Shown here piece by piece: positions 37,646 to 59,908 of a stretch of 64,000 bases of DNA (position 1 is its first letter; every line of letters begins with the position of its first letter). This DNA is from an uncultured Alphaproteobacteria bacterium. Lineage in GTDB: Bacteria; Pseudomonadota; Alphaproteobacteria; RF32; CAG-239. The notes beneath the pieces are model-generated. The model saw only the letters and a list, made by a program, of their open reading frames with translations. It ran no database searches and had not been told where the DNA came from. The stretch is taken from positions 1-64,000 of the forward strand of contig CALXPT010000007.1 in assembly GCA_944390355.1 (NCBI GenBank). The letters are read 5' to 3'. The translations under genes and the position numbers were made by a program.

Positions 37646-37697
37646 CAAAAAAAGCCTTGCTAAAGCAAGACTAATGAAATGGAGCGGGCAATGGGAT
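37646..37697. repeat. Left attachment-site copy (52-bp direct repeat)
   Basis: These 52 bases are identical to 59800-59851. The segment holds the 3' end of tRNA-Gly (T-stem 3' strand, acceptor 3' strand, CCA) and the tRNA's terminator, all on the minus strand. Only the 3' part of the tRNA is present here, so this is the att half-site left by integration. The sequences diverge at 37698. Confidence 0.9.
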
Positions 37698-42522: not shown

Positions 42523-43611
42523 ATGACTTTTTTACCAAAATATACCATTACCAAAGATATTTTAGCTGATTTAACTAAGATTGAAGCTGTTAAAAATTCG
42601 TTTGATGATAAACTTTTGTCACCTGTTTTATTATCTTCGCTGCATAAAACTGCCAAAATAGCACAAAGTCACTACTCTACGCAAATTGAAGGTAATCATT
42701 TATCATTAAAACAAGTAGAAACGACGCTTTATTCTGCCAACAATAGAACAAAAGAATATCAAGGTCATGACGAAAAAGAAGTCAAAGCTTATTATGAAGC
42801 TATCAATTATATGGAAAAAGTTCTTGAAAATGGCGGAGAATTTGATGAAAAGCTGGTGCAAAAAATCCATTCACTAATTGAAGGCAGTAAAAAAATTATT
42901 CCATATCGTAATGAACAAAATGCAATATATGACACATCTGACGGCTCACTTGTTTATCTTCCACCGGAAACTAAAGATGTTCCGATTATGATGAAAGATT
43001 TGGTTGCTTGGGTAAATGAGAATATTGATAAATTGCCAACACCTATTGTAGCCGGACTGTTTCATTATCAATTTGTAACCATTCACCCATATTTTGATGG
43101 TAATGGTCGAACAGCACGCTTGATGACAAGTTATATTATGCGTAAATTCGGTTATGGCTTAAAAGGTATTTATTCTTTGGAAGAGTATTATGCTAAAAAT
43201 CTTAAAGATTATTATCAAGCATTAGCAACACATCCGCATCATAACTATTATTTTGGCAGACATGAAGCAGATTTAACTCCTTGGCTTGAATACTTTATTA
43301 AAGGTGTGGCAACGGCATTTGAAAATATCAATATTAAAGCGCAAGAACAGCAGAACACAGGTATTAAAACGGATATATCACCTATGTTGCGCAAACTTGA
43401 TATTAAACAACGCAAAATTTTAGAATTATTTGTAGAGTTTGATCAAATAACATCAAATCAAGCAGGTGAATATTTGAATTTATCATCACAATCAGCCAGA
43501 CTTTTATTAAATAGATGGGTAGAAGAAGGATTTTTAATAATAGCAAATAAAGCGCGTAAAAACAGGACTTATTGCTTATCCAAAGAATATGAACAGCTAC
43601 TCATGAAATAA
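42523..43611 (+). CDS. Fic-family protein, class II (self-inhibited)
   Basis: Fic proteins transfer AMP or other groups to target proteins. The 362-residue protein has the canonical active site HPYFDGNGRTAR (about residues 188-199). The class II inhibitory helix motif STQIEGN (S52, E56, G57) precedes the Fic core. The flap segment IYDTSDGSLVYLPPE is present, and a C-terminal winged-helix domain (about 295-360, ITSNQAGEYLNLSSQSARLLLNRW) is also seen, as in many Fic proteins with an auto-regulatory DNA-binding tail. No separate antitoxin is adjacent. A TAGGAGT site precedes the start. Confidence 0.93.
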   Translation: MTFLPKYTITKDILADLTKIEAVKNSFDDKLLSPVLLSSLHKTAKIAQSHYSTQIEGNHLSLKQVETTLYSANNRTKEYQGHDEKEVKAYYEAINYMEKVLENGGEFDEKLVQKIHSLIEGSKKIIPYRNEQNAIYDTSDGSLVYLPPETKDVPIMMKDLVAWVNENIDKLPTPIVAGLFHYQFVTIHPYFDGNGRTARLMTSYIMRKFGYGLKGIYSLEEYYAKNLKDYYQALATHPHHNYYFGRHEADLTPWLEYFIKGVATAFENINIKAQEQQNTGIKTDISPMLRKLDIKQRKILELFVEFDQITSNQAGEYLNLSSQSARLLLNRWVEEGFLIIANKARKNRTYCLSKEYEQLLMK

Positions 43612-43794: not shown

Positions 43795-46656
43795 TTATTT
43801 AGTCTTTAGATACTTTGAAAGCTTTTCTGTTTCCACATCTACTTGCCAGCCTTCACAATTTGCAAGATATTTATCAATGAAGGCATCTTTATCTGATTTT
43901 AATTTAGGATCATCTGTAAAATCATTTTCAAAGATATACTTAACTAATTCTTCAATAAATGATTTGTTTGAAATAAATAAGCGCTGTTTTGATGAAATTA
44001 TTAATTTTGATATGATATCAAAAATTTTTCTCGGAAATTTCGGTAAATCTCTTAGTAAGTTATCCTCAATCATAAATAATTGAATAGGAACATTATGGCT
44101 AACAACCAAATTATGAAGGTTATCTATTACCCACTGTTCATCAAATTGATTACATTGATACCATCTTTCAAATTGCGATAATACTTCTGTATATTTGATT
44201 TCTTTTCCTTTTATTTCTTGTAACAGCCATTCCCAGAGTTTAACAAATCTATTGATAACTTCTTGCGCTATAATCTGGTCTGGGTTGTCTCTATTCCACA
44301 TAGAAAAACCTATATAATTTATAAATTCCACCTGTTTCTGATAGTTGTTGTGGTCGTTAAATAACAATTTAATTATTTCAGAATCCAAATCAAACAGACC
44401 TCTACCATAACATATAGCTAGAAATTTACTTACCTGAGAATCTTCTGTTTTAGTTTGTTCATTATTAGAATATATTTGATTTTCAAGTACATATGTAAAT
44501 TTACTTTTAAGCAAATGAAACGTATCATTATATACTTGTGAATAATCTACAAAAGTTGCAAAAGTAGCTTCAAATAAATGGCGTTTTTCTGAATCTTCCG
44601 GAAATAAGTTATCAATATTATTTTCCGTTATGGTTGGCAATGCATAATGTATCCAAGGAAGCATATGTGCAAAAATAGCATATGTTTCTAGGTACTTAGG
44701 ATTTTTAAATAATTCATCTATAACCGTAGCAATATCTTCTAATGGCTTATTGTTATTTTTACTCCAAATAAGATAAAGGACTAATCCTTCCACTGACTTT
44801 CCGTGTAATGAATTGATTGCAGATGTTAAATAATCTCCTAGATTGTTAACAGTTTTCTCTTCTTTTACTTTCTTTTCTAAATATTTATCTTCTGCAAAAC
44901 ATAATTTTTTTAATATATTAAAAGCCTTATCAAGATATTTCTCATCAAAATCTTCTAAATTTTCTTTGTATCTAAACGCCTTAGACAGCAAATCGGCGAC
45001 CACCGCTTTAGCATTTTGCCAATCGCTATCACCATCATGAAATTTACTACGATTTTCAAATACACTATTCTGTTCAACTATCCATTGGCTAAATTCAATT
45101 ATATTTTGCCATTGTGCATTTGTTATTGTTTTCGCATCACGTAACCCAGATAATATGTAGTGTATATAAGTTGGATCTTCAATTGCTTTTAATTTTTCCA
45201 AACAATTTAAATACTTATTTGGATTTGATATAGAGTCATTTCTAAGATCTTCTGCTAAACCAATTTTATGAGAAACCATATCATCGGATTTCCAAGAATT
45301 AATAAACTCTACTATTTCTTCAACCGTTTTTTCTGACAATTCGTCTGTATTTAGTGGTGAAGATATAAATCCACTTTCCATCCAAAAAAGCATGTCAGGA
45401 TGATTACTGTATTCTACTTCTTCACCTTTATCATTGTACAATATTGTGTGATATTTATCTAACATATCTTGAGATAAATATTTTTTAATAGGAGTTAATT
45501 TATGTAAACGCCATATGTTTTTTTTCTTTTCAGATGATATTTGATCATCTGTTTCATAATCTTTCCTATTTGGTCCTTCATCTATATAATCTAATATAAT
45601 ATTTTGATTTTCTGTAGAAAGTAAATTAAATTTTTCTTGTATTAGTAAATAATATTCATGGTGGTATGTACTATTATCAAAAATATCTCTATTTGTAAGA
45701 TATTTAACTAATAAATCATTATTACATCTATCACTTACTCTTAATAAGTATAATATGATTCTCGTCATTGTTGGACAATTTGAACTTTCTAAAAGATCAA
45801 AAATATTTTGATTACTATTTGCATCTCCATTTTGAATTAATTCAAAGGATCTATCCCTAATTTCAGATACCAAGATATATAGTGGTTCACTTTTTTTATA
45901 GATATCCTGAACGTGTTTTTCGATAGCGGAACGATGAATATAATCAGTATAGTAATAGCCATCAATTTCATCTTTAGATAAACCATCAATCATATCTTTA
46001 GTTATTATGGAAACATATAAATCCAATAATTCTTCTGAAAAATCTGAAAATATAGTATTTACTATTTTAATGATTTGCTCATAGCCATAACCGGAATTGG
46101 CAATTTTAATGTATGGACTAAAAGAAGCTCCTATACTATACTTATCTTTTGTTAATTTGATAGATAATAAGTTTCTACATATATCTAATGCTAAAGGTTT
46201 ATTTATAGTCTTTAATTTCGTTAATACTTGTTTCAAGATATCATCATCTTGCCATCCAAATCTATCTATTTTTTTTAGGCTTTCATTATATACATTCATA
46301 ATTTCTATAAAATCTCTATCAGGTAATTTTATTGATAGAGAAATGCTTTGCTGAATAAGCCACCAGTCAGGATTCTGATTTTCTTTTATTTTTTGCAATA
46401 TTGGTTGTATGAATTGCATAATTTGATTTGGAATTTCAGATGCTATTTTAAGTAAATAAGGAAAAGCAACCCATTCTTTATATTCTTGACCATAATCATT
46501 CGTATTTGTAGAGTACTCTAAAAGATTTTGCTCCTTTAGTATTTCAAACCACTCAGGATTCTCTAATTTAGCAAAAAATTGCTCTTTTAAATTACCTTTC
46601 AGATTAGCTAATACAAATTTAATTTGTTCTTGTGTTGGTTTCTTCCAGGATGACAT
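43795..46656 (-). CDS. Large helical-repeat protein of unknown function
   Basis: This 953-residue protein is not recognised. It has no TM helix, signal peptide, P loop or nuclease motif visible by eye, and looks all-helical throughout, compatible with HEAT/TPR-like arrays. The N-terminal segment KEQFFAKLENPEWFEILKEQ, then WVAFPYLLKIASEIP, recalls the helical-repeat parts seen in large defence-type proteins, but this is only an impression. It is the second gene of a pair: its start overlaps the end of the 230-aa gene by 38 bp, so the two are coupled. Codon use is very AT-rich. Confidence 0.75.
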   Translation of the reverse strand: MSSWKKPTQEQIKFVLANLKGNLKEQFFAKLENPEWFEILKEQNLLEYSTNTNDYGQEYKEWVAFPYLLKIASEIPNQIMQFIQPILQKIKENQNPDWWLIQQSISLSIKLPDRDFIEIMNVYNESLKKIDRFGWQDDDILKQVLTKLKTINKPLALDICRNLLSIKLTKDKYSIGASFSPYIKIANSGYGYEQIIKIVNTIFSDFSEELLDLYVSIITKDMIDGLSKDEIDGYYYTDYIHRSAIEKHVQDIYKKSEPLYILVSEIRDRSFELIQNGDANSNQNIFDLLESSNCPTMTRIILYLLRVSDRCNNDLLVKYLTNRDIFDNSTYHHEYYLLIQEKFNLLSTENQNIILDYIDEGPNRKDYETDDQISSEKKKNIWRLHKLTPIKKYLSQDMLDKYHTILYNDKGEEVEYSNHPDMLFWMESGFISSPLNTDELSEKTVEEIVEFINSWKSDDMVSHKIGLAEDLRNDSISNPNKYLNCLEKLKAIEDPTYIHYILSGLRDAKTITNAQWQNIIEFSQWIVEQNSVFENRSKFHDGDSDWQNAKAVVADLLSKAFRYKENLEDFDEKYLDKAFNILKKLCFAEDKYLEKKVKEEKTVNNLGDYLTSAINSLHGKSVEGLVLYLIWSKNNNKPLEDIATVIDELFKNPKYLETYAIFAHMLPWIHYALPTITENNIDNLFPEDSEKRHLFEATFATFVDYSQVYNDTFHLLKSKFTYVLENQIYSNNEQTKTEDSQVSKFLAICYGRGLFDLDSEIIKLLFNDHNNYQKQVEFINYIGFSMWNRDNPDQIIAQEVINRFVKLWEWLLQEIKGKEIKYTEVLSQFERWYQCNQFDEQWVIDNLHNLVVSHNVPIQLFMIEDNLLRDLPKFPRKIFDIISKLIISSKQRLFISNKSFIEELVKYIFENDFTDDPKLKSDKDAFIDKYLANCEGWQVDVETEKLSKYLKTK

Positions 46657-47311
46657 CTAAAGCCTCTTTTATTTCTATATATTGCGGTGGTTCTAATTGT
46701 TTTATAAAATCTTCTAACATTTTAATATAATTCATAAATTGTTCATCAGATATTACATGAAATGTTGTATCAAAATGACGTAGTTTATCAATATTACCTT
46801 TAGCTGCTTGAACATTATCAAGAAGAGTTTCAATATACTCTGTGATTTTATCCTTCTCAGTGCTATTATTCTCTATTTTCAATGCAAGTAGGGGATTTCT
46901 ATCTAATAAGGATTCATACAATTTAGACCTTTCATTTTGTAGTGATTTGAGTTCTGTCCATATTTTATTGAAGACGTTTTGTAATTTACTTTCACTACAT
47001 TGTCCATGTTTAACAAAATCAATAGCTCTTATTGCTTCTATAGCTTGTGATTTTATCAATGTTTCCTCACTTCTAATGATAACATTTATTAATTCTCTGA
47101 AGCAATGTGCAACAACAGATTGTTTTGCTGGGAAATCTTTTATTTGCAGTAGATATATCCCAGCTAAATATATTTTCTCGGCATTTTCATTAATACCTCT
47201 TAGTATTTTTCTAATATTTTGTCTTTCCGGATCTAAATTCTTTGAAAAATACTCCTCTATTGATGAGGGGATGTAATCTTCTACAAATTTAGAATATTTA
47301 TCATCGGTCAT
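46619..47311 (-). CDS. Helical protein partner of the 953-aa gene
   Basis: This 230-residue soluble protein is not recognised. It is mostly helical and acidic, with a likely coiled coil at about residues 105-190 and no catalytic motif. The middle segment QSVVAHCFRELINVIIRSEE suggests a helical adaptor or sensor domain. It is first in the pair with the 953-aa gene (38-bp overlap). An ORF and promoter-like AT-rich region precede it. It may be the regulator or sensor for the large partner. Confidence 0.72.
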   Translation of the reverse strand: MTDDKYSKFVEDYIPSSIEEYFSKNLDPERQNIRKILRGINENAEKIYLAGIYLLQIKDFPAKQSVVAHCFRELINVIIRSEETLIKSQAIEAIRAIDFVKHGQCSESKLQNVFNKIWTELKSLQNERSKLYESLLDRNPLLALKIENNSTEKDKITEYIETLLDNVQAAKGNIDKLRHFDTTFHVISDEQFMNYIKMLEDFIKQLEPPQYIEIKEALDVILEETNTRTN

Positions 47312-48160: not shown

Positions 48161-50248
48161 TTATTCAATCATATACTCTTTAAGTTTATCCATTATTTTA
48201 ACAATTTCTTTTATTTGATATGAGCTCAATTGAAGATATTTGCCATTGCAGTAATTGACAGCGGCTAAAAGTTGTTTTTCTTCATTATAGTTCAATACGC
48301 CTTGAGATTTTCCTCTTTCAATAATTGACGTCCAATACTTACTTCCTTTTTCATATACAGAAATCTCATCACTGATACCATTGGTAAATCTTTGTTCTTT
48401 TTTAGCAATTACTTTTTCTATCTTTTGTTCAGAAGGAGTAATGAACCTTTCCACAATCGCTTCAGACAAATCGTATGTTTTTTTGCTTATTATTTGCCAA
48501 CATTCTTCTTTTTTGCAATATGTCTCAATATTAGCTGTAGATCTATTTTCATCGTATATTGTATCAAAAACTAATTTTCCTATTCTAGAAATTTCTGATT
48601 TAAATACATCTGAAACACTTTGGTGGTTCCATATTTCGATATAATTGATATCTTTCTTCATTTCTCGAGCTTCATAAACAAGTTTAGCAAATGTATACGC
48701 TACAATTTGAGGCCTATAAGCTCTCCTTTCTTGATACCATGGTTGGTCTGAAATAATATTTTCAATAAATGAAAATAGAATTTTTTTACCAATGAGTTCT
48801 TTGTAAAACAATTCATTACAGAAAGAGTTGTCTTTAGTCCACATTTTTTCCATATTACTATGGAATTTTGCTGAGTTCACTTCACCACCCCAAGATACAA
48901 AATGAGGCAACATCTCCGAACAATTTATATATTTTGCCAAATCTGGTAATGTAAATTTTTTCTTTTTTGGATTCACTAATTTATAATCATTTTGCTGTGA
49001 CTTTGTCATTTGCATCATAGGTTGTTCATATTGTCCTCGTGCTCGTTCAAAGAACCATTTCTCTTGAACAATATTACCACTTGCAAGAGGTGCATAGACT
49101 TTTCTTGAAAAATCTTCAATTCTCACATAAAAAGGATGACTTGAATTTAAATCTGCAGTTTTTACTTTATTTTGACTATTTGCATATCTTGCAATATTTC
49201 TGATTAATTCAGGATCACTATCTTTTAATATTGTTAATTTCATTTGTACAAAGATGCCTGATAAATCTGCATTATTTTTAATATTTGTCGCCGCGAGAGT
49301 AGCTGTCGTTTGGCCACCATTAATGATTTGCAAATCAGTAAATGAAGTTATTAATAAACCTGTATCATTTTTTATTGTATTTATACTTTTGGCAGTTGTA
49401 GAAATACCATTATTATAGGTGAAAAATCTAGATTTTTCATTTAGAATTGTTCCTCTAATTCCTTTATTAACTGCACCATTAAATTTTAAGAAAGAACGAA
49501 CATTAGCTTCTAAAAGAGACGCATTGTGTTTTTTATAGATATCTGCTAAAAAACTACCTGGTACGATTGCTAAATACGATTCATATTGATCTGTTTCTAT
49601 ATCTGCTTTTATACAAGGAATCCCTGTTATTCCAAAATCGCTACAATTGATAATGATATCATCTTTTTGAAAATTAGCTAGTTTGGAATTATAAATTTTC
49701 TCAATATCCAGAACATCTAAATCAACCTTAAAAATTTTATTGTTATATACAAAATCAGGAAGCTCTAGTGTCTTCACTACTTTACTAAGTTTATTTGTAC
49801 TAGCAATGAACAAATGTATCTTATATATGTATTCAATGTTTAATTTTATATCTTTAGCCAGTTGTACGGCTGGATCCGATTGCTCGGCTTGAGCAAAATA
49901 TCCTTTGAGACTATTTTCGAAATAATTGAGAAGTAATTGGGACTTATTGTAAATAAATTCATTCGTAATATTTTTCATTTCATCTTTATTGAAATCCACA
50001 TATAGCAAATTAACCGTATTTGATACTAAATCCAAATAAGCAGCATCAATTCTCATACTTTTATAAGCTTTTGTACCTTTTATGAATTCGTAAAAACACT
50101 GAGACATGTCTGTGATTAATGAATAATCATTTTTCAATATATCCGTAGCAATATCTATAAACACTTCTTCTTCATATCTGTGATTATTAACCGATTCAGC
50201 ACAAATATCTTCATTTATAAAATTTTCTCTAAATTCTTCTAGGTTCAT
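48161..50248 (-). CDS. AIPR-family protein (abortive-infection related)
   Basis: The 695-residue protein carries the AIPR domain: ANVRSFLKFNGAVNKGIRGT, then FFTYNNGISTTAKS and LQIINGGQTTATLAATN (about residues 270-345). The family is named for abortive-infection phage resistance and occurs in restriction-like operons. The start at 50248 (ATG) is preferred over the TTG at 50275 because AAGGAG sits 10 nt upstream. It is the last gene of a six-gene operon with the C5 methyltransferase, GHKL ATPase, Z1 and PD-(D/E)XK genes. Confidence 0.88.
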   Translation of the reverse strand: MNLEEFRENFINEDICAESVNNHRYEEEVFIDIATDILKNDYSLITDMSQCFYEFIKGTKAYKSMRIDAAYLDLVSNTVNLLYVDFNKDEMKNITNEFIYNKSQLLLNYFENSLKGYFAQAEQSDPAVQLAKDIKLNIEYIYKIHLFIASTNKLSKVVKTLELPDFVYNNKIFKVDLDVLDIEKIYNSKLANFQKDDIIINCSDFGITGIPCIKADIETDQYESYLAIVPGSFLADIYKKHNASLLEANVRSFLKFNGAVNKGIRGTILNEKSRFFTYNNGISTTAKSINTIKNDTGLLITSFTDLQIINGGQTTATLAATNIKNNADLSGIFVQMKLTILKDSDPELIRNIARYANSQNKVKTADLNSSHPFYVRIEDFSRKVYAPLASGNIVQEKWFFERARGQYEQPMMQMTKSQQNDYKLVNPKKKKFTLPDLAKYINCSEMLPHFVSWGGEVNSAKFHSNMEKMWTKDNSFCNELFYKELIGKKILFSFIENIISDQPWYQERRAYRPQIVAYTFAKLVYEAREMKKDINYIEIWNHQSVSDVFKSEISRIGKLVFDTIYDENRSTANIETYCKKEECWQIISKKTYDLSEAIVERFITPSEQKIEKVIAKKEQRFTNGISDEISVYEKGSKYWTSIIERGKSQGVLNYNEEKQLLAAVNYCNGKYLQLSSYQIKEIVKIMDKLKEYMIE

Positions 50249-50255
50249 AATTGTA

Positions 50256-51185
50256 TTACTCCTTATACTGTTCAAGAGAATTCACCAGCAAAGCATATTT
50301 AACCTCGCTAATTTCTGGATACGAGATATCTTTTTCTGTAAGACGTGGAAATTTATTGTTAACCAAATATATATTCATAGATTTAACGTCATAATTTCTA
50401 CTAATATACTCATCCTGTAAACAAAAATTAGAAATCTTACTTAAAAATAATTCTTCATATTTTTCATCATGCAATTGTTCTATGATTTGTGTTAATAGCA
50501 CAGATATATTTGAGTTATCATTATTAAATTCATCAGACATTTCTTCAAGTTTAATAATAACTAATCTACCATCTATGGATGAAGATAATTGAGTTAAAGA
50601 TGAAATATGGACGTTTTGAACATTGTTACCAATCGTTTTAATTTCAAACCAATTATCACTTAGAGAAAAATCTTTACTAGTCGAATTTGGACCACTCCAA
50701 CTACATATGGCTGTCTTAACATCATACTTCTTAAGCATATAATTCTTTAGAAAATATAATTCCCCATATAATCCTTGTAGAACTTCTCTAGATAGTTGAG
50801 TATTATTTGCTTTAACAAACATAGACTTCCATGTTACATATCTCTTTTTGATAGATGTCAAAGCAATCATTTCTTCTTTGATGTCAGTAATGCTTCTAAT
50901 CATGTCTTCACAAAAGGTAAAAAACACCACCTTTGCATCTTCTTGGATTAAATCAAATGATGTCCAATACACATCTTGTTCTTCTTGTCCCTGCGTAATT
51001 TTTAATAATTTTGTAGAATCTAATTTTGGAGCAGGAATAGATGACATAAATGATAAACGGATATACCCTTCTGTGGAAATGCCCAAATATACCCCTAAAC
51101 AAGAAGTTATTGGTATTTTTTTCTGATTACCTTTTGAACTTTCAACTAATGTTTGATATAGCTGTTCTAATCTAGTCATCATCAT
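50256..51185 (-). CDS. PD-(D/E)XK nuclease-motif protein (DUF4420 type)
   Basis: The 309-residue protein is a likely restriction nuclease subunit. The PD-(D/E)XK elements are visible: GLYGELYFLKNYML with the helix Glu, then SKDFSLSDNWFEIKTIG, where Asp and E-I-K form the catalytic set, and GRLVIIKLEE as the next strand. DUF4420-type proteins are known neighbours of Z1 and MORC-like genes. The start overlaps the Z1 gene by 14 bp. Three ATGs follow each other at the start, so the exact first codon is uncertain. Confidence 0.85.
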   Translation of the reverse strand: MMMTRLEQLYQTLVESSKGNQKKIPITSCLGVYLGISTEGYIRLSFMSSIPAPKLDSTKLLKITQGQEEQDVYWTSFDLIQEDAKVVFFTFCEDMIRSITDIKEEMIALTSIKKRYVTWKSMFVKANNTQLSREVLQGLYGELYFLKNYMLKKYDVKTAICSWSGPNSTSKDFSLSDNWFEIKTIGNNVQNVHISSLTQLSSSIDGRLVIIKLEEMSDEFNNDNSNISVLLTQIIEQLHDEKYEELFLSKISNFCLQDEYISRNYDVKSMNIYLVNNKFPRLTEKDISYPEISEVKYALLVNSLEQYKE

Positions 51186-53967
51186 CGCTTATACCCTCAT
51201 CTTCATCATCTATTTCTAAATTACTAATTAGTTCATCTAGTTTTCTTCTATTTGCTTTATATTTCACTATACATTTTGACTCTTTTCTAGGAAATGCAAT
51301 AGCAAATGCTAATAATAAATCATTTCCAAGATTGTCTTTTGTTTTTTGTTTCAAATCCCTCTGTTTACCATTATCTTCACCAAATAATTTTAGTTCATCA
51401 TCTATTTTAAGATCTATTGGATATATGATAAATATTGGTTTTTCTCTTATTTCCAGATAATCCTTGGCTGTAATAGATTTTGATTTTGGAAGACGAGAAA
51501 TATCTTCATCAGATAATCCTGAATTTAATATTCCAGGATCAAGTACACGGTTATTAGTGGATCCTATTCTTATCCAATCATCGAGATTTTCAGTATGAAA
51601 ACTACGAGTTGTAGCCTTAATTTCCCCATCAACAAAATTTACACTTTTATTAGAATCACCTGATGCTATCACGACATCCCATTCATAAAACATCTCACTA
51701 TGCTCTATGTATTCTGATAATGATTCCGTGTCGAATTTTTTATTTACATACGGGATTTTTAAGTTTTTGATAAGTTCTGCAACTCTGTGCTTAGAAACAT
51801 TTTGAGCCATATATCTGTTTTTTATAAAAGAAAAAGGTATTTCTTTATAAAATTTCTTAAATTCTTCTATATTATGTAAATTTACTTTTGGATCCTTTGA
51901 TAATTTTGAAGTATCTGCATATACACCACCATAATTTAAGTGATATGTAATTGTTTCTGAATTTCTCATTTTGTTTCTACTAGTAACCAATAGAGTAGTT
52001 TCCAAAGTATCAGGGGATTCTCTAACCATTAAACCAAATTCTTTAGGTGTTTTATCCTGATTTTTCATTTCCACAAATTGTTCTTTAAGATCAGATACAG
52101 CCTCTCTTACAGCATCAAATCGATCTATATTAATTTGAGATAAATATACTCTACACAAATCATCATAACGAGGCCGATACCCAAACCATCTACACATTTG
52201 TAGCAATGTATCATATGCCCCCGCATTTCTGCTATAATAACTAACCATTAATCCTTCCAAGGTCAATCCACGTGATAATACGAGACCGCCTATGGCAATT
52301 ACCCGGGCTCCGGTAGCTTCAAATTCTTCGTAATCAAATCGTTGCTTGGTTCCGTTTGAGTTTAATGTAGACATCTTACCATTGCGAGAATTAACAACAA
52401 CTATTTGTATTTGTTTAACTTCTTCATAGAGTCCTTTTTGAATATCTTTCCATGTTATCAATGGATAACCATTATCTTCTTCTACTAGTATTGTTTTGTA
52501 AAAAGTACTATTAAATAAGCGATATATCTTATTCATTTCATCATTTTTACAAAAATCTTTTTCATCCTTACAATCATCTTGTTCTATTATATTTTTTAAG
52601 GTTTCTATATATTCGGATACTCTTTCCCATATTATATCTTGAACGTCATTATATCTAGATATATTAATCATCATTGAACGATGTTTGTTTTTTTGACCGC
52701 GTATTGTTCTAATCACACAACCAATCAAAAAGCTATGAATCGCTTCTTTTAAACTTTCTGCTAATTGAGGATAAAAAACATCTTTTTTATGAATAACAGG
52801 AAGAAAATTATCCTCTTGCTCATCAAGTACTCTAATAGAGCGAGATAACACATCACCTTCAGGGAAAAATTTATCGCATCCACAATAAGTTGGAGGGGAC
52901 TTAAGTAATGAGATAAAGTCAGCAGGAAATAAATTAAGATTATCTTCATTTTCATCAATTGGATTAATAAAAATATTTGCGAATGGCGTTGCAGTAAAGC
53001 CGACATAACTTGCTATTGGAAATTTATTAAATATTCCTCGAATACATCTATTAATTGTAGTTGGATCCTCATCATCTTTCTTTGTATTTATTGAAGAATT
53101 ATCTGCTTCATCATCAATTATTAAAATATTTTTTACATTGTGACCTTTTAATGTCGATTGCAATCGTTCCATGACACTTTCTAAGATTGCTTTTTGTTTT
53201 TTTACGACGAGAACAACCGGCTTATTCATATCAGAAAAAGTTATATTATAATTGCGTTGTATAAACTTTTTGAAATCATTTGCTCTATTTGTTAATGGAA
53301 CAACATAATGCTCACCATTAATTTTTCCGACTCCACAATATTCTATACTATTTCCTATACTATCACTAATTGCGCCAATCACGCCATAATCTGTCCTTTT
53401 TTGAGTTTGTAATCGTAAAGAATCTGTTGTTCCTGCAAGTAAGATAACAATTTTATATCCGTAATCGTAAGCCATGTTTATCAAACCGAGATAATTTGCT
53501 GTTTTTCCAGATTGCACATCTCCAACAACTAGCCCTCTTTTCTGATCCTTAACTTCTGACCTTGGATTTGCACAATGCGATAAAACATCCTCACACGACT
53601 TTTCTATGTTAGCTATTGCTTTCATTTCAAAACCTTCATTTCGTAGATACATTTTATATCTATCAAAATAAGAATGTAGAGTTTTATCCTTTACATCATA
53701 TAACCAAGAATGCGAGTTTTTATCTTTTACAATTGTAACCGGCTCGTATGTCTTTATTCCAACCTCAAATTCAAACTTATCAATAACAGCATTTAATATA
53801 TTTTTATATTCCGGTAAATTTGCAGCTTGTGGTAAAATTATTTCAAGCAATTTTGCAGCACGTTCCAAAACTTCAGAATGAGTTTTTTTCTCACCTCCGA
53901 ATGATAAATATAACATATCTGCAGCTTTTCTTATCTCTATATCAAATTCCATTAAACTATCAATCAT
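51172..53967 (-). CDS. Z1-domain ATPase/helicase-like protein
   Basis: The 931-residue protein has the Z1 signature GLVVGDVQSGKTANYLGLI (Walker A, about residues 145-163) and a DEAD-like Walker B, ILIIDDEADNSS, then the Z1 core with VGFTATPFANIFINP and ARVIAIGGLVLSRGLTLEGL and QMCRWFGYRPRYDDL (helicase motif V/VI region). Z1 proteins are superfamily II-related ATPases found in predicted MORC-linked restriction systems. It overlaps both neighbours (8 bp with the GHKL ATPase, 14 bp with the nuclease), implying one translational unit. Confidence 0.9.
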   Translation of the reverse strand: MIDSLMEFDIEIRKAADMLYLSFGGEKKTHSEVLERAAKLLEIILPQAANLPEYKNILNAVIDKFEFEVGIKTYEPVTIVKDKNSHSWLYDVKDKTLHSYFDRYKMYLRNEGFEMKAIANIEKSCEDVLSHCANPRSEVKDQKRGLVVGDVQSGKTANYLGLINMAYDYGYKIVILLAGTTDSLRLQTQKRTDYGVIGAISDSIGNSIEYCGVGKINGEHYVVPLTNRANDFKKFIQRNYNITFSDMNKPVVLVVKKQKAILESVMERLQSTLKGHNVKNILIIDDEADNSSINTKKDDEDPTTINRCIRGIFNKFPIASYVGFTATPFANIFINPIDENEDNLNLFPADFISLLKSPPTYCGCDKFFPEGDVLSRSIRVLDEQEDNFLPVIHKKDVFYPQLAESLKEAIHSFLIGCVIRTIRGQKNKHRSMMINISRYNDVQDIIWERVSEYIETLKNIIEQDDCKDEKDFCKNDEMNKIYRLFNSTFYKTILVEEDNGYPLITWKDIQKGLYEEVKQIQIVVVNSRNGKMSTLNSNGTKQRFDYEEFEATGARVIAIGGLVLSRGLTLEGLMVSYYSRNAGAYDTLLQMCRWFGYRPRYDDLCRVYLSQINIDRFDAVREAVSDLKEQFVEMKNQDKTPKEFGLMVRESPDTLETTLLVTSRNKMRNSETITYHLNYGGVYADTSKLSKDPKVNLHNIEEFKKFYKEIPFSFIKNRYMAQNVSKHRVAELIKNLKIPYVNKKFDTESLSEYIEHSEMFYEWDVVIASGDSNKSVNFVDGEIKATTRSFHTENLDDWIRIGSTNNRVLDPGILNSGLSDEDISRLPKSKSITAKDYLEIREKPIFIIYPIDLKIDDELKLFGEDNGKQRDLKQKTKDNLGNDLLLAFAIAFPRKESKCIVKYKANRRKLDELISNLEIDDEDEGISDDDD

Positions 53968-55423
53968 TGCCGAAAACCTTTTTTCTTATTTGTTCTTTAT
54001 ACTTTGCTATTTTTTGATATCCTTCCGTTATGAATATGTGATCAAATTGCTCCAACTTTTTATCTTCATCAAACATTGATAGAATTTCTATTACTTCTTC
54101 AATAAGATGTTCTTCTTCAGAATCATCACCAGAATTTGTAATTGTTAAAGCGTCCATATTATCATTAGAAATAGAATACTTTGGTAAATAACATTCAATT
54201 TGAGATAAAGCCATATTTAATAAATTTTGTTCATGAGTGCCCAAAACATCATATAAAGCTCTTATTGCTGGAATATCTCTATTAATGAGGTATTTAATCT
54301 TACCCTCATGCTCATTAATTCTATTCCAAACTTTACATTCTACTGATTGCTCTTTGACACCAGGAAATCTCGTAGTTCTTTTACTTCTTACAATAGAATC
54401 TTCAATAGCAACTTTTATTTGTTCTTTTACTTTATCTGGAATATTTGCAGAAGATTTTTTAACATCAAGTGTCCATACAGCATCTAACTGGGAAGGTATA
54501 TCTATTTGTATTCTTGCTAATTTATTTAGTTCACTTCTGATCCCCATTCTCATCCAGCTTCCCCACAATATAAGCCGTCTATTTCTATAAATATACAATC
54601 CTTGTTCATCAAAAATACTTTTAGGATTACCCAACAAAGCTTTCTCATCCTGTGTTAATGTATTTGCGAATGGTAATGTATATGGAATAACTACTATTTT
54701 AGCTCCATCAACATTTATTTCTTTAGTGCGTCCTGTTTGCTGTCTTCCGTGAGATCGAAGAAGGAAAGGATCTCTTTCTTCTATTCTTTTTTGATTATAT
54801 TTAATGATTATATTATCATAAAACCTATGAAAAACTAATTCTACATGTTTTTTAGAGTCAGCAACCAACGCTCTGAAAGTATCTTCAAACTTTTTGGCAG
54901 ATCCTTCTATTTTATCAAATTTTTGCCATATAACAAGAGTTCCTGTTTCATATTCTATTAGATCATCTATATGTGGTAATTTTTTAATCTCTGTATTATC
55001 AAGTAGTTGTAAAAGAAGTTTATTATTTTGTTCCACAATATCTAAATCAAAACACATTGCATGAATTCTGCCAAACTTCTTGCTTGCGACTATAAATTTT
55101 CTGCATTGTGATAAAGAGGCTGATTTTAATCCTAATCCAAATCTTCCTAATTCAATTTCATTGTCTTGTTTTTGCTCACGGTTTGATCCAAACAACATAG
55201 CATTATCTAATTCATCCGAATTCATGCCACATCCATTATCTAATATACAAAAATAAGGAGTATCAGATAAAGGATCTGAAAATATATCAATTTGAGAAGC
55301 ATTTGCAGAAATGCTATTATCTATAATATCAGCAACGGCTGTTGAAAAGTTATATCCAATGGATCTCAGGCCCTTTAATAGAGTATTTGCTGGAAAAGAT
55401 TTTTCAACTAGTTCAGACATCAA
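53960..55423 (-). CDS. GHKL (MORC/MutL-type) ATPase
   Basis: The 487-residue protein has a GHKL ATPase domain: N box STAVADIIDNSISA (about 27-40), G1 ILDNGCGM (about 60-67), and G2 LGRFGLGLKSASLSQCRKF (about 91-109), followed by an S5-fold transducer region (about 200-300) and a C-terminal domain without a kinase helix. This is the prokaryotic MORC/MutL type that acts as a clamp or motor on DNA. It overlaps the upstream gene by ATGA. Confidence 0.9.
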   Translation of the reverse strand: MMSELVEKSFPANTLLKGLRSIGYNFSTAVADIIDNSISANASQIDIFSDPLSDTPYFCILDNGCGMNSDELDNAMLFGSNREQKQDNEIELGRFGLGLKSASLSQCRKFIVASKKFGRIHAMCFDLDIVEQNNKLLLQLLDNTEIKKLPHIDDLIEYETGTLVIWQKFDKIEGSAKKFEDTFRALVADSKKHVELVFHRFYDNIIIKYNQKRIEERDPFLLRSHGRQQTGRTKEINVDGAKIVVIPYTLPFANTLTQDEKALLGNPKSIFDEQGLYIYRNRRLILWGSWMRMGIRSELNKLARIQIDIPSQLDAVWTLDVKKSSANIPDKVKEQIKVAIEDSIVRSKRTTRFPGVKEQSVECKVWNRINEHEGKIKYLINRDIPAIRALYDVLGTHEQNLLNMALSQIECYLPKYSISNDNMDALTITNSGDDSEEEHLIEEVIEILSMFDEDKKLEQFDHIFITEGYQKIAKYKEQIRKKVFGND

Positions 55424-56454
55424 TCTTCCTCCATATTTCTATAACACACAGAGTTAATATTTTTTGCGAAATTATTCAGTTCTTCTAATGTATATAATTG
55501 ATATTTTGGATTATTATTAATATCAGTAACAAGCAGAACTTTTGTGTTCTCATAAAAATCATTAATAAATCGTATTTTTTGCATGGACAAGTTAAAATAA
55601 GGAATTTTTGTAGATGTATAACGTACTATTATAAAATATTTTTTTCCACTAACTTCATATTCATAGTCATATAAAGCATATGGATAATAATCTGTCAATA
55701 ATCGTATATTTACACCATTCTGTGAAGAAATATACTGTAATGCATATTGATTTGCTATAAGGCGATTTTCTTCCATAATTTCAAAAAAATTATCTGGGGA
55801 AACCTTATCATATCCTAAACTTTCTCTTAAAGCGATAATTTCAGCATCATAACTATCTGAAATATCATTGAAAATGTATGAGAATTTGTTTCCAACCCCT
55901 TTTTTATTAACAAAAACTTTTGAATATGGAATTAAGTTTGATCCAACGATTGTTGCTTTGAAATTTAGTGTACGACTATTAGTATCATATTCAAAACCCT
56001 CAACAACAAAAGCGTAATTATGCAATATTTCAGATATTGTTTTCAATACTACATTATTGTTAATCTCTATTTCATTATCTGTATATTTAAATGAAGTTGG
56101 ATAATGCAATTTCTGCCTTCCGTTATGAACATAGCCTTCTGCTATTTCTTCTCTTATATACATACAAAAAGCTGGGATATTGATTAAAAGTTCTCCATTA
56201 ACAGCTATCTTATCAAAAACAAATACTTTATTGATTTTAACTTCAGATCGAGATTTAGATAAAATCTTATCAATAATACTTTCTTTACAGATGGTATCTA
56301 TATTTTCAGGTATTTTTAGTATATCTAATAAATCGTTATTCCAAGAATTATATTGCTTTAGTGGAGTAGCAACCGTAGCAGTATGTCCAGAAGCATTATC
56401 ATTTTTTATATTAAAATATAAGGATTTTGTATCAATAAACAATCTTAAAAGCAT
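55420..56454 (-). CDS. Unknown operon protein with possible degenerate nuclease domain
   Basis: The family of this 344-residue protein is not certain. The C-terminal 120 residues resemble a DUF3883/PD-(D/E)XK-like pattern: NRLIANQYALQYISSQ, then DYEYEVSGKKYFIIVRYTS, where the expected E-V-K reads I-V-R, and FENTKVLLVTDI. The N-terminal part is unassigned. If nuclease-derived, it appears catalytically altered. Its place between the methyltransferase (4-bp gap) and the ATPase (ATGA overlap) shows it is an operon component, perhaps target recognition. Confidence 0.7.
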   Translation of the reverse strand: MLLRLFIDTKSLYFNIKNDNASGHTATVATPLKQYNSWNNDLLDILKIPENIDTICKESIIDKILSKSRSEVKINKVFVFDKIAVNGELLINIPAFCMYIREEIAEGYVHNGRQKLHYPTSFKYTDNEIEINNNVVLKTISEILHNYAFVVEGFEYDTNSRTLNFKATIVGSNLIPYSKVFVNKKGVGNKFSYIFNDISDSYDAEIIALRESLGYDKVSPDNFFEIMEENRLIANQYALQYISSQNGVNIRLLTDYYPYALYDYEYEVSGKKYFIIVRYTSTKIPYFNLSMQKIRFINDFYENTKVLLVTDINNNPKYQLYTLEELNNFAKNINSVCYRNMEED

Positions 56455-56458
56455 AATA

Positions 56459-57595
56459 TTATCCTTTTAAGCTATATTTATTCACAAACATTTCTCTAAA
56501 AATTTCCTCAAGCACATTTACAACTATAGAATTACCTATAAGTTTATTCATTTTTCTATAGCTATATCCTAATTTTAACGTTTTTTCATAATCTTTTTCA
56601 GAAAAGCCCATTAGTAGAAAAGCTTCTCTAATTGTAGGTCGTCGATATGAAACCCCTTTTTCGCCAGTATAAGGAAACAGAGCTGCACAATGTGTTCTAT
56701 CCATATTACAAGTTATTGTTCTTACTATCGTATGCTCATCTAAACTTCGTCCATTTATTTTCCACATTTGTTCCCTGGATGGAGTTTTGTTCAATTGAGC
56801 TGTATCCGCTTCAGCTTTCAATACCGGATTAGAGTAATCATTTCTGAAAAACTCTTTAAATTTATATATTCTCTCTTTTTTCTTGATTTTAGAATTAAGA
56901 TTTAGTTTACTTCCTAAGTGACTAACTATAAAAGCCCTTTCTCGGTCTTGAGGTACACCAAAATCAAGTGCATTTAAAATCATACAATCATCATTATAAT
57001 AGCCAATAGATGATAGAAATTCAAGCCATTCATCCAAGTCTTTTTTATTAGAAGCTGCTTGAATAGTTTTTACATTTTCTAATAAAAGATACTCTGGTAA
57101 TCTTTTTTGCTGTTTAAGACCATTCAAAATTCGTTCAATCTGCCACAACAACCCAGATCTTGTACCAGATCCTTTTTTCATTCCTTGACATAATCCGCCT
57201 GTTGACAGATCTTGACAAGGAAAGCTGTAAACAAGTAAATCAATGTTTGGTAAATCCTGAGCTTGAATATCTAAAATTGATCCATAATTATTACATTTTT
57301 TATTTGCAATATATAGTTTTTTTAATTCTTCATCATTCAATCTGCTTATGTCATAAGGTCTGACAGAATCCATACTAAATGTATATTTAGAAAGGTAAGA
57401 AAGTAAATCTTCTCTATCCTTAGGTGCTTTTACTTGCTTTGTCGTACAATGAATCTCTGAATAACACTCTATTGCATCAATAAACCAATCACTTATGCCT
57501 ACAATTTCATAGTCAATACCTAAACGCTTTAGAGCACTTGCTTGCGCTCCAATACCAGCAAATGCCTCAAAAACTCGAAGCTTACTTTTTTGCAT
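56459..57595 (-). CDS. DNA (cytosine-5-)-methyltransferase
   Basis: The 378-residue protein has the full C5-MTase set: motif I VFEAFAGIGAQASALKRLG, motif IV SFPCQDLS with Cys at about 127, motif VI LLENV at about 172-175, motif VIII FGVPQDRERAFI, and motif IX/X KLIGNSIVVNVLEE. All catalytic residues are kept, unlike the other C5 homologue at 40 kb. It is the first gene of the six-gene operon and would modify the cognate sites to protect the host. Confidence 0.95.
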   Translation of the reverse strand: MQKSKLRVFEAFAGIGAQASALKRLGIDYEIVGISDWFIDAIECYSEIHCTTKQVKAPKDREDLLSYLSKYTFSMDSVRPYDISRLNDEELKKLYIANKKCNNYGSILDIQAQDLPNIDLLVYSFPCQDLSTGGLCQGMKKGSGTRSGLLWQIERILNGLKQQKRLPEYLLLENVKTIQAASNKKDLDEWLEFLSSIGYYNDDCMILNALDFGVPQDRERAFIVSHLGSKLNLNSKIKKKERIYKFKEFFRNDYSNPVLKAEADTAQLNKTPSREQMWKINGRSLDEHTIVRTITCNMDRTHCAALFPYTGEKGVSYRRPTIREAFLLMGFSEKDYEKTLKLGYSYRKMNKLIGNSIVVNVLEEIFREMFVNKYSLKG

Positions 57596-57827: not shown

Positions 57828-58178
57828 ATGTATAACCCGATAACAGAAACCATAAATACGCGGGAGGCTGTTTTGTTTTCCTGCGGTGGTGTGAATGAAG
57901 TTGCTAGACAGTTCGCCGAGATGCTTCAATATTGTAAAAGAAAGAATTTGCACGTTGTTGACATCTTTTTTGAAACTTCCGGCATAAAATCTTATGAAAA
58001 AGACTGTATGAACAAGCTTCTTGACTACCTTAAACGCAATAAAACCAAACAATCGGTGGTATTTTATTCAAGAAAAACTTATCTCAAATACGTAGATATC
58101 AGTAAATTACTGCCTTTTATGCAATCCGGACAAATTGAACTCCGATTTGCTAAAGATAATGTTATCATAGGTCATTAA
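57828..58178 (+). CDS. Small protein with resolvase-like fold pattern
   Basis: This 116-residue protein is not firmly recognised. The order of strand, helix (ARQFAEMLQYCKRKNLHVV), strand with FFETSG and helix (CMNKLLDYLKRNKTKQ), then VVFYSRKTYL, recalls the N-terminal domain of serine recombinases, but the catalytic serine context and Arg residues are not convincing. It may be a recombination accessory or excision-control protein. It is divergent from the operon and convergent with the integrase (17-bp gap). Confidence 0.5.
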   Translation: MYNPITETINTREAVLFSCGGVNEVARQFAEMLQYCKRKNLHVVDIFFETSGIKSYEKDCMNKLLDYLKRNKTKQSVVFYSRKTYLKYVDISKLLPFMQSGQIELRFAKDNVIIGH

Positions 58179-58194: not shown

Positions 58195-59709
58195 TTACTT
58201 CGCTTTTTTCATAATCTCTTTCCATTTTGCAAAGTGACCGGACAGGAAATTGTAGTTAAATTTTGACATCTCTGTCTTTATCTGATGCAAAGTATGGTTA
58301 GAATATGATTGTTCCATGGTCGTTTTACCTTCCCAACCGATAATATCATTGATAAAAGTTGCAATAATACCGGCATTTTGCATAGCTATACTGGCATTTT
58401 TCCGGAAAGAGTGAAAATCATAGCTGTCTTTAGTGCCTGATTTTACGCCGATTTTCTGCAAAAAGTTAAGAACCATCCGCACCGTGTATCTACTGTTATA
58501 TGTTCCGCTTTTGGTTTGACACTTCGGAAAGATAAAATCCGTTCCTTTAGCATTAAGTGCTGTTTGACGACGCTTAACATAATCCACAAAGCCTAAATCC
58601 AAAAGTTGCGGATGTATCGGTACAATTCGTTCGGAAGCCTCATTTTTCAAGTGCTTAATCGGATGGTTTTCAATAAACTGAATGCACCAGATACCATCTT
58701 TTTCAAATACATCATCATATTGTAACGTAATCGCACTGTTGGCTCTTGCACCGGTAAACAAAGCAATCATGCATACCCAAAAAGCATCCGGATGTTCTTT
58801 AAAATAAGTGTGTTTCGGATTAAACATCTCAAGCAACTGCTCATTACTATATGGTTGATGCGGTTTTTTCTCCGATTTTTTGGTTTTCTCAATGTTTGGA
58901 AGGTTGTTAATCACGCTGATTTTATAAAAATCCGAATCGATATTGCTTCCGCAAGTCGCTAACTCTTTAATATAACGAAGTTGTTTTCTTTTATAATCAC
59001 CTTTGGCATCAGCCTGATCAACCACAACTTTGGAAATTGCACTGACTGTGTCGGCATTGTGAAACTTTGCATAATCATCATCAAGCGATATGCCGACAGC
59101 TTGCAAAAGCTTGGTAATGGTATTTTTCTTCCGCCGTTTTTCATCATCACAGTTGTTGGCCTTCAACAGCATCATGTCCAAAACTTCTGAAATTTTACGC
59201 GATGGAATCGATGTAGGCTTTGAAGATGTCGGTTGATTAGCTAAAAATGCCTCAATCATCGGGCGCATCTCAACAAATTGCTTTATTAACAACCGGTCTT
59301 CTTGGCTTAAATTCATCTGATTGGATTGCATAGCTATACTTCCCAACAGATTTAATTTTTCAATATTTTCACGCTTGTTTCGTTTGGATAACCTTTTTTG
59401 CATTTGAAACCGTGACAACATACCGACATTACCAGTACCCACACCTTGCCCGGAGGTCTGTTCAAAAATTAAGTCATTGAAAAGGCGACGTAATTCATCA
59501 AAAGGCCAATTTTTATCTGTTGTCATTGCGCGTAATTTCTCTCTTGCTTCAAAAAAATTGTCTGTGTGTAACGATATACGCTTATATCGGCGTTTGCCAC
59601 CCACACGTTCGAGTTCGACTCTATAATAAAAAATATTATTGCGCAACCACAAATGGGGTAGTTTTGCATCACAGTTTGCATCACACTTTTCAAACATTTC
59701 AGCCTCCAT
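58195..59709 (-). CDS. Tyrosine-type site-specific integrase
   Basis: The 504-residue phage-type integrase catalyses element excision and integration at tRNA-Gly. The N-terminal arm-binding region reads PHLWLRNNIFYYRVELERVGG; a core-binding domain lies in the middle. The C-terminal catalytic domain has Arg I in TGARANSAITLQYDD, HxxR as DFHSFRKNASIAMQNAG, and the nucleophile region GKTTMEQSYSNHTL with Tyr. Its stop faces the 116-aa gene; its start lies about 90 bp from the right att repeat. Confidence 0.95.
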   Translation of the reverse strand: MEAEMFEKCDANCDAKLPHLWLRNNIFYYRVELERVGGKRRYKRISLHTDNFFEAREKLRAMTTDKNWPFDELRRLFNDLIFEQTSGQGVGTGNVGMLSRFQMQKRLSKRNKRENIEKLNLLGSIAMQSNQMNLSQEDRLLIKQFVEMRPMIEAFLANQPTSSKPTSIPSRKISEVLDMMLLKANNCDDEKRRKKNTITKLLQAVGISLDDDYAKFHNADTVSAISKVVVDQADAKGDYKRKQLRYIKELATCGSNIDSDFYKISVINNLPNIEKTKKSEKKPHQPYSNEQLLEMFNPKHTYFKEHPDAFWVCMIALFTGARANSAITLQYDDVFEKDGIWCIQFIENHPIKHLKNEASERIVPIHPQLLDLGFVDYVKRRQTALNAKGTDFIFPKCQTKSGTYNSRYTVRMVLNFLQKIGVKSGTKDSYDFHSFRKNASIAMQNAGIIATFINDIIGWEGKTTMEQSYSNHTLHQIKTEMSKFNYNFLSGHFAKWKEIMKKAK

Positions 59710-59799: not shown

Positions 59800-59851
59800 C
59801 AAAAAAAGCCTTGCTAAAGCAAGACTAATGAAATGGAGCGGGCAATGGGAT
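59800..59851. repeat. Right attachment-site copy (52-bp direct repeat)
   Basis: Identical to 37646-37697. It lies at the 3' end of the intact tRNA-Gly gene and covers its acceptor and T-stem 3' strands, CCA and terminator. Confidence 0.9.
59807..59833 (-). terminator. Terminator of tRNA-Gly
   Basis: On the minus strand, AGTCTTGCTTTAGCAAGGCT forms a stem (CTTGC/GCAAG plus flanks) followed by TTTTTTT. It is carried within the att repeat. Confidence 0.75.
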
Positions 59852-59908
59852 TCGGACCCACGACATCAACCTTGGCAAGGTTGCGCTCTACCCCTGAGCT
59901 ATACCCGC
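59834..59908 (-). tRNA. tRNA-Gly (anticodon GCC)
   Basis: This 75-nt gene folds as a cloverleaf: acceptor GCGGGTA / TGCCCGC, discriminator T and encoded CCA, D arm GCTC-AGGGGTA-GAGC, anticodon arm CAACC-TTGCCAA-GGTTG with GCC, and T arm GTGGG-TCCGAAT-CCCAT. The T loop reads T-C-C rather than the usual T-T-C, so position 55 is C. It is the integration target of the 22-kb element and remains complete after insertion. Confidence 0.95.

What the first reader, a model, noticed from the sequence alone, without database searches (positions are those of the whole stretch)
48161..57595. Six-gene MORC/Z1/AIPR restriction-like operon
C5 methyltransferase, unknown, GHKL ATPase, Z1 ATPase, PD-(D/E)XK and AIPR genes overlap or abut by 1-20 bp. 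MORC-like and Z1 genes with methylases and nucleases were predicted as restriction systems from gene neighbourhoods; biochemical detail is sparse. This copy looks complete, with all catalytic motifs of the methylase, ATPase and nuclease present.
Basis: partly seen in the sequence, partly recalled or inferred. Interest (0 to 1): 0.72.

Follow-up and report, generated by a model that had tools for sequence, protein, structure and literature searches.

The report
MORC–Z1 phage-restriction operon with dead endonuclease
A six-gene bacterial defence operon of an already known kind (DNA methylase plus MORC-type and Z1 ATPases, a nuclease and an AIPR protein), carried on a mobile island, in which the unnamed second gene turns out to be a former restriction enzyme that has lost its cutting site and probably now only recognises the target DNA for the others.

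Summary
The six genes exist, are intact, and form one leftward operon. Five belong to the known MORC–Z1–DUF4420–AIPR plus C5-methylase kind: predicted by Iyer 2008, related to the validated anti-phage system MZA, and listed as a putative "type II" system by Miller 2022. The operon is cargo of a 22-kb integrative island in tRNA-Gly (perfect 52-bp repeats; empty site in a same-genus genome). A related genome of another genus shares exactly these six genes (75.9% DNA identity, nothing beyond); all six are under purifying selection.

The new part is the "unknown" gene. It occurs in six MZA-type loci, always between methylase and MORC. Its C-terminal half has a PD-(D/E)XK fold, but the catalytic E-x-K is lost in all six. 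A 31%-identical relative in the same bacterial family has E-x-K intact and forms a two-gene unit with a C5 methylase, without MORC/Z1. It is best read as an inactivated type II restriction enzyme, probably now the target-recognition subunit (inferred). Other branches carry different nuclease-less restriction-enzyme domains beside the methylase, suggesting the ATPase/nuclease core is plugged into captured recognition modules. Known kind of system, new variant; function untested.

The parts
56459..57595 (-). gene 1: C5-cytosine DNA methyltransferase, 378 aa; nearest solved structure M.MpeI (CG-specific); the base-contact residues of M.MpeI are not conserved, so specificity is unknown
   Evidence: Pfam PF00145 9e-51; 4dkj 7e-45; motifs
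55420..56454 (-). gene 2 (labelled G5 in calls): inactivated type II restriction endonuclease; N-terminal domain possibly B3-like, C-terminal PD-(D/E)XK/NOV_C fold with E-x-K lost (I276, R278)
   Evidence: six homologs in the same slot; fold matches 221-344 to Hjc/RecU/EcoRV/SPARDA; active two-gene relative L168
53960..55420 (-). gene 3: MORC-family GHKL ATPase (MzaB-like), with the MORC-defining motif GLYIYRNRRLI at 275-285 (numbered from the TTG at 55423)
   Evidence: PF13589 2e-30; MzaB NF041932 5e-75, below cut-off; motif; MORC2 5e-9 in PDB
51172..53967 (-). gene 4: SF2/Z1 ATPase (MzaC-like), motif DTLLQMCRWFG at 586
   Evidence: PF10593 9e-70, PF04851; MzaC 2e-123, below cut-off
50256..51185 (-). 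gene 5 of the operon: DUF4420 PD-(D/E)XK nuclease (MzaD-like), E142-D172-E181xK183 intact
   Evidence: PF14390 5e-47; family conservation of 124 sequences
48161..50248 (-). gene 6: AIPR protein (MzaE-like); likely ATG start 50248, longer ORF to 50275
   Evidence: PF10592 4e-83, PF22879 5e-14; MzaE 1e-78, below cut-off
58195..59709 (-). tyrosine integrase of the island
   Evidence: PF00589 2e-14
59800..59851 (.). attachment repeat at the 3' end of tRNA-Gly (tRNA 59834-59908, minus strand)
   Evidence: perfect 52-bp direct repeat, tRNA
37646..37697 (.). other attachment repeat; island = 37646-59851
   Evidence: single-copy empty site in same-genus genome G468 = L157
57596..57827 (-). upstream intergenic region, the likely place of a shared promoter; the next gene upstream (57828-58178) is divergent
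   Evidence: promoter scan uninformative in this AT-rich DNA (77 found, 69.9 expected)

Best explanation
The operon is a mobile, ATP-dependent restriction-modification-type anti-phage system of the MORC-Z1-DUF4420-AIPR kind. Proposed working: (1) the C5 methylase marks the host's copies of a target sequence; (2) the second protein, descended from a type II restriction endonuclease that was partner of a C5 methylase and has lost its E-x-K, binds the unmodified target in foreign DNA but cannot cut; (3) it hands the site to the Z1/SF2 ATPase, which hydrolyses ATP and moves on or remodels DNA as proposed for the Z1 protein of CglI, while the MORC-type ATPase clamps or loops the DNA; (4) the DUF4420 PD-(D/E)XK protein cuts; (5) AIPR is an accessory effector. 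Shown here: gene content, intact catalytic residues, co-inheritance as a six-gene unit, loss of the nuclease motif in all six copies of gene 2, an apparently active two-gene relative, mobility. Inferred: steps 2-5 and the defence function.
For: Family assignments and intact motifs. A C5 methylase within reach of all 73 long-flank loci that have B, C, D and E. The gene-2 loci are one fully supported clade in a Z1-protein tree (support 1.0 for the five with a full-length Z1 protein) and all keep the order methylase-gene2-B-C-D-E as far as the contigs run. L126 aligns over exactly 48162-57595. dN/dS 0.07-0.16 in all six genes. Gene 2: C-terminal domain aligns mainly with PD-(D/E)XK nucleases (SPARDA Z 9.0, Hjc 8.8, I-Ssp6803I 8.5, RecU 7.2, EcoRV 6.1); residues at the E-x-K positions are I/I/I/I/M/L and R/R/K/R/F/F, but E and K in the stand-alone relative L168, which aligns full length at 1e-48, scores NOV_C 5e-14, overlaps a C5 methylase gene and lies in a genome without a Z1 gene (G403). 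The loop 8-34 is the best conserved part of gene 2 (0.81 mean identity against 0.42 for the dead nuclease half), as expected if recognition is kept and cutting is not. Other loci of the family carry nuclease-less recognition parts of other restriction enzymes next to the methylase: L043 an NgoFVII B3 domain (PF20731 6e-26; PADLOC REase_II model positions 187-350 of 350), L037 an AspBHI_N half, L014/L052 a protein like the first 173 residues of a McrB-like restriction protein, with the nuclease/AAA halves not found in these loci. CglI, a methylase-R-Z1 system, is biochemically an ATP-dependent restriction system whose R protein carries the B3 recognition domain (PMC4267653).
Against: No experiment on this operon or on any member with gene 2. 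The B3-like assignment of the N-terminal half is weak: best Z 3.5, no Foldseek match of note, no profile match to two restriction recognition domains. Only one catalytically intact relative was found, so 'a type II enzyme lost its site' rests on one outgroup. The DUF4420 or the Z1 protein could recognise the target instead. Similarity to the validated MZA proteins is low (all four scores far below the NCBIfam equivalog cut-offs).
Confidence: 0.6

Rival explanations
1. Gene 2 is a regulator or inhibitor: the inactive endonuclease binds target or operator DNA and keeps the operon's expression or nuclease activity in check (as C proteins do in type II systems), and recognition is done by the Z1/DUF4420/methylase proteins.
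For: Most relatives of the core lack gene 2 and must recognise DNA by other means (53 of 71 long-flank loci without gene 2 carry Vsr); the catalytic site is dead.
Against: Gene 2 is inside the operon between methylase and ATPases and co-inherited with the core, not at the edge or divergent; unrelated recognition domains sit beside the methylase in other branches.
Confidence: 0.2
2. Gene 2 is still a nuclease, with its active site formed by other residues, and acts as the operon's second cutter or nickase in place of Vsr.
For: Vsr, an endonuclease, is present in most relatives (in some in the same slot) and in none of the six gene-2 loci; D263 and several acidic residues (E102, E103, E225) are invariant in the six.
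Against: The E-x-K glutamate is replaced by I/M/L in all six and the lysine by R or F in five; the C-terminal half is the least conserved part.
Confidence: 0.15
3. The operon is an MZA-like abortive-infection system in which the methylase and gene 2 are not for self/non-self discrimination; AIPR or the ATPases sense phage and stop the cell.
For: AIPR was named from abortive-infection phage resistance; MZA is described as a validated anti-phage system with a sigma-like MzaA (PMC9523054) and its mechanism is not known to me.
Against: Near-universal C5 methylase neighbour and co-inheritance of methylase and gene 2 with the core.
Confidence: 0.2

Closest known systems
Putative 'type II' defence system of Miller et al. 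2022 (PMC9523054): Z1 + DUF4420 + cytosine methylase + AIPR, with MORC
   Same: Five of the six components, wide spread across bacteria, low similarity to MZA
   Different: Gene 2 is not among the domains named in the text read; that paper mentions a putative transcriptional regulator instead. No experiment there either
MZA (mzaABCDE), experimentally validated anti-phage system
   Same: Same four core families B-C-D-E in the same order
   Different: Far below NCBIfam equivalog cut-offs (E 265/1050, D 71/420, C 413/1500, B 253/850 bits); sigma-like MzaA absent; has C5 methylase and gene 2
Iyer-Abhiman-Aravind 2008 third type of MORC operon (PMC2292703)
   Same: MORC motif, SF2 ATPase with DThhQXuRhFG motif, RE-fold protein with E-D-ExK, cytosine methylase
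   Different: Their frequent Vsr partner is absent here; gene 2 not described. They do report VP1/RAV (B3) domain proteins, but in their second operon type
CglI / NgoAVII restriction systems (PMC4267653)
   Same: C5 methylase, a restriction protein of similar length, and a Z1 ATPase, encoded in that order in relatives L162 and L164; ATP-dependent cutting of unmodified sites
   Different: CglI's R protein is an active PLD nuclease with a B3 domain; here the slot holds a dead PD-(D/E)XK protein and cutting is assigned to DUF4420; no MORC or AIPR in CglI

Membership tests
MORC ATPase family | GHKL domain plus S5-fold motif GhXhhpXXRhl | tested here: met
   HATPase_c_3 2e-30; single match GLYIYRNRRLI at 275
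MORC ATPase family | GHKL general-base glutamate | tested here: not met
   Asp32 in the window and in at least 90% of 114 relatives; a family-wide conservative substitution, not damage to this copy. The family-specific S5 motif is met, so the protein is called MORC-like
Iyer 2008 type-3 MORC RM operon | SF2 helicase with DThhQXuRhFG motif | tested here: met
   DTLLQMCRWFG at 586; the tiny position is Cys here, Gly in 82%
Iyer 2008 type-3 MORC RM operon | adjacent RE-fold protein with E-D-ExK | tested here: met
   DUF4420 E142, D172, E181, K183
Miller 2022 putative type II system | Z1, DUF4420, cytosine methylase, AIPR and MORC in one operon | tested here: met
MZA (validated system) | MzaB-E equivalogs over NCBIfam cut-offs | tested here: not met
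   all four below cut-off, so related to MZA but not filed as MZA
MZA (validated system) | sigma-like MzaA upstream of MzaB | tested here: not met
   gene 2 in that place; no sigma-factor match in the operon
Type II restriction endonuclease (gene 2) | PD-(D/E)XK fold | tested here: met
   model pLDDT mostly 75-94 in 211-330; best-ranked matches are PD-(D/E)XK nucleases; NOV_C in the relative
Type II restriction endonuclease (gene 2) | intact catalytic E-x-K | tested here: not met
   I276/R278; E lost in six of six
B3 / EcoRII-N DNA-binding fold (gene 2, residues 1-175) | fold match | tested here: inconclusive
   7 of 16 listed entries are B3-type domains, but Z is at most 3.5; Foldseek has no significant match
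Restriction-modification system | 5mC modification and restriction of unmodified DNA | not testable with these tools
   needs methylation sequencing and plating

The most novel reading that the evidence does not exclude
The MORC-Z1-DUF4420-AIPR core is a sequence-blind ATP-dependent effector that is repeatedly plugged into recognition modules captured from ordinary restriction systems: a methylase together with its partner restriction enzyme stripped of its nuclease, by point mutation (gene 2 here) or by loss of the nuclease half (NgoFVII B3 in L043, LlaJI.R1-like N-domain in L014/L052, AspBHI_N in L037). A type II enzyme would thereby be converted into the specificity subunit of a multi-subunit restriction machine.
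Probability: 0.4. Interest if true: 0.72.

Novelty: new variant of a known kind. Interest (0 to 1): 0.52.

Why it matters
Prokaryotic MORC/Z1 systems are widespread, related to eukaryotic MORC proteins, and lack a worked-out mechanism; a central unknown is how they find foreign DNA. A dead restriction enzyme locked between the methylase and the ATPases gives a concrete, testable answer, and the recurrence of other nuclease-less recognition domains in the family would explain how these systems change specificity.

Tried and rejected
Methylase specificity by analogy with the CG-specific M.MpeI: rejected, as the contact loops of M.MpeI (Glu305, Ala323, Ser325; PMC10899764) are not conserved. Sequence evidence for a B3 domain in gene 2: none (Pfam, hhalign). 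Gene 2 on plasmids or phages: none by tblastn, nor its active relative; one IMG/VR contig, in an MZA-type operon. Wider search for more stand-alone relatives in 398 phylum, 134 order and 372 class genomes: only G403. Promoter/terminator scan: no more promoters than shuffles give. Literature on MZA: names collide with journal codes and place names; little beyond PMC9523054, PMC2292703 and island surveys such as PMC12629846. Idea that Vsr and recognition genes exclude each other: rejected, L043 has both.
Full report
Observation. Six minus-strand ORFs fill 48161-57595. In order of transcription they are a C5 methylase (PF00145, 9e-51), a 344-aa protein without any family match (gene 2, labelled G5 in the calls), a GHKL ATPase (PF13589, 2e-30), an SF2/Z1 ATPase (PF10593, 9e-70), a DUF4420 nuclease (PF14390, 5e-47) and an AIPR protein (PF10592, 4e-83). 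The junctions, with the starts favoured by ribosome-binding sites in the sequence, are +4, -1, -8, -14 (or less) and +7 nt. The gene upstream is divergent (57828-58178), so the methylase is the first gene. Catalytic residues of methylase, Z1 ATPase and DUF4420 are intact and agree with family columns conserved at 90% or more. The GHKL protein carries the MORC-defining motif of Iyer et al. and the Z1 protein their DThhQXuRhFG motif (PMC2292703).

Mobility. A perfect 52-bp direct repeat lies at 37646-37697 and 59800-59851; the second copy covers the 3' end of tRNA-Gly, next to a tyrosine integrase. In a genome of the same genus (G468, locus L157) the two flanks are contiguous, with a single copy of the repeat at the tRNA: a clean empty site. 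The island is thus about 22.15 kb; from 41 to 58 kb G+C is mostly 27-32%, against 37-49% in the kilobases after the tRNA. Besides the operon it carries a Fic protein (SoFic 8e-51), a second C5 methylase with a 447-aa neighbour, and an unassigned 953-aa/230-aa pair.

Unit of inheritance. In G475, another genus of the same family, the DNA match runs over exactly 48162-57595 at 75.9% identity and stops at both ends of the operon (locus L126). All six genes are under purifying selection between the two (dN/dS 0.07-0.16; dS 1.3-2.0 is near saturation, so these are approximate). The six-gene order recurs in uncultured bacteria of distant groups (L008; L009 Eubacteriaceae; L010 Bacilli) and, as far as its contig runs (through the start of the Z1 gene), in one IMG/VR contig (L119). 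The five of these with a full-length Z1 protein form one clade with support 1.0 in a Z1-protein tree.

Family context. Among loci fetched by similarity to the Z1 protein (not a census), all 73 with long flanks and B, C, D and E have a C5 methylase near; 53 of the 71 without gene 2 also have a Vsr-type endonuclease, in some between methylase and MORC; none of the six gene-2 loci has Vsr, though some of those contigs are short. This is the MORC/SF2/RE-fold/methylase/Vsr operon predicted in 2008, and the putative 'type II' system of Miller et al. 2022, who describe it as reminiscent of the validated mzaABCDE with about 20% identity. Here too the scores to MZA models lie far below the equivalog cut-offs. 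So it is a relative of MZA and a member of the broader kind, not MZA itself.

The unknown gene. An AlphaFold model from six homologs has a confident C-terminal domain that matches PD-(D/E)XK enzymes: SPARDA Z 9.0, Hjc 8.8, I-Ssp6803I 8.5, RecU 7.2, EcoRV 6.1 (Foldseek best E 0.009). A Z of 8-9 alone could be a common arrangement, but the listed rows are dominated by this one fold, and one member hits NOV_C at 0.003; that NOV_C is a PD-(D/E)XK-type domain is my own knowledge. A profile search then found a divergent relative in G403 (E 2e-60), in a genome without a Z1 gene. It overlaps a C5 methylase gene, aligns with the window protein over nearly its full length (31%, 1e-48), scores NOV_C at 5e-14, and has D...E-V-K intact. 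In the six operon copies the E is I/I/I/I/M/L and the K is R/R/K/R/F/F. So the operon protein looks like a type II restriction enzyme that lost its active site and has since been kept under selection, with the nuclease half the least conserved (0.42) and the N-terminal loop 8-34 the most conserved (0.81). The N-terminal half has no secure fold assignment; 7 of the 16 entries that a second-look aligner lists are B3-type DNA-binding domains, four of these seven from restriction enzymes, but at Z 3.5 or less and without sequence support. I treat B3 as a lead.

A wider pattern. Three other branches carry nuclease-less pieces of other restriction enzymes beside the methylase: L043 an NgoFVII-type B3 domain alone (PF20731 6e-26; positions 187-350 of a 350-position type II enzyme model), L037 an AspBHI N-terminal half alone, L014/L052 a 200-aa protein like the first 173 residues of the McrB-like AAA protein of L015, whose locus has two methylases and two further proteins ('LlaJI-like' is my reading), with paired methylases in L014/L052 as well. 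The missing halves are not found in those loci, while the control finds one in L008. They lie apart from the gene-2 clade in the tree. One case could be decay; four different ones suggest that the core is repeatedly coupled to captured recognition modules.

Mechanism. CglI, where a Z1 ATPase works with a B3-bearing R protein and a C5 methylase, hydrolyses ATP and cuts at unmodified sites (PMC4267653). By analogy I propose: methylase marks self, gene 2 recognises non-self sites, Z1 and MORC ATPases move or loop DNA, DUF4420 cuts, AIPR assists. The steps beyond anatomy are inference.

Verdict. Known kind of system, new variant; the surprising part is the converted restriction enzyme.

Noticed in passing
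43795-47311 (minus strand): Two overlapping genes (953 aa and 230 aa) in the same island, without Pfam or PADLOC family; the larger has only weak matches to haloarchaeal plasmid ATPases. A candidate undescribed two-gene defence system.
   Followed up: partly
38688-41079 (plus strand): A 447-aa protein overlapping a second C5 methylase by 8 bp: probably a second RM system on the island.
   Followed up: partly
42523-43611 (plus strand): Fic-domain protein matching SoFic (8e-51), another defence gene on the island.
   Followed up: partly
L168:7629-9795 (genome G403): Two-gene RM unit: C5 methylase plus a NOV_C-type endonuclease whose N-terminal domain has no named family or solved relative by sequence.
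   Followed up: yes
L005, L007, L008, L010, L109: AspBHI-type restriction enzymes (AspBHI_N plus Mrr_cat where scanned) sit beside methylase-bearing MZA-type operons, an odd pairing because such enzymes are expected to attack methylated DNA.
   Followed up: partly
53960-55420 and its 114 relatives: The MORC-type ATPases of this family have Asp instead of Glu at the GHKL general-base position, family-wide, which may mean slow ATP turnover.
   Followed up: partly
57828-58178 (plus strand): 116-aa protein with a weak match to the resolvase N-terminal domain (4e-4, under cut-off), divergent from the operon and next to the integrase; possibly a remnant or regulator.
   Followed up: no
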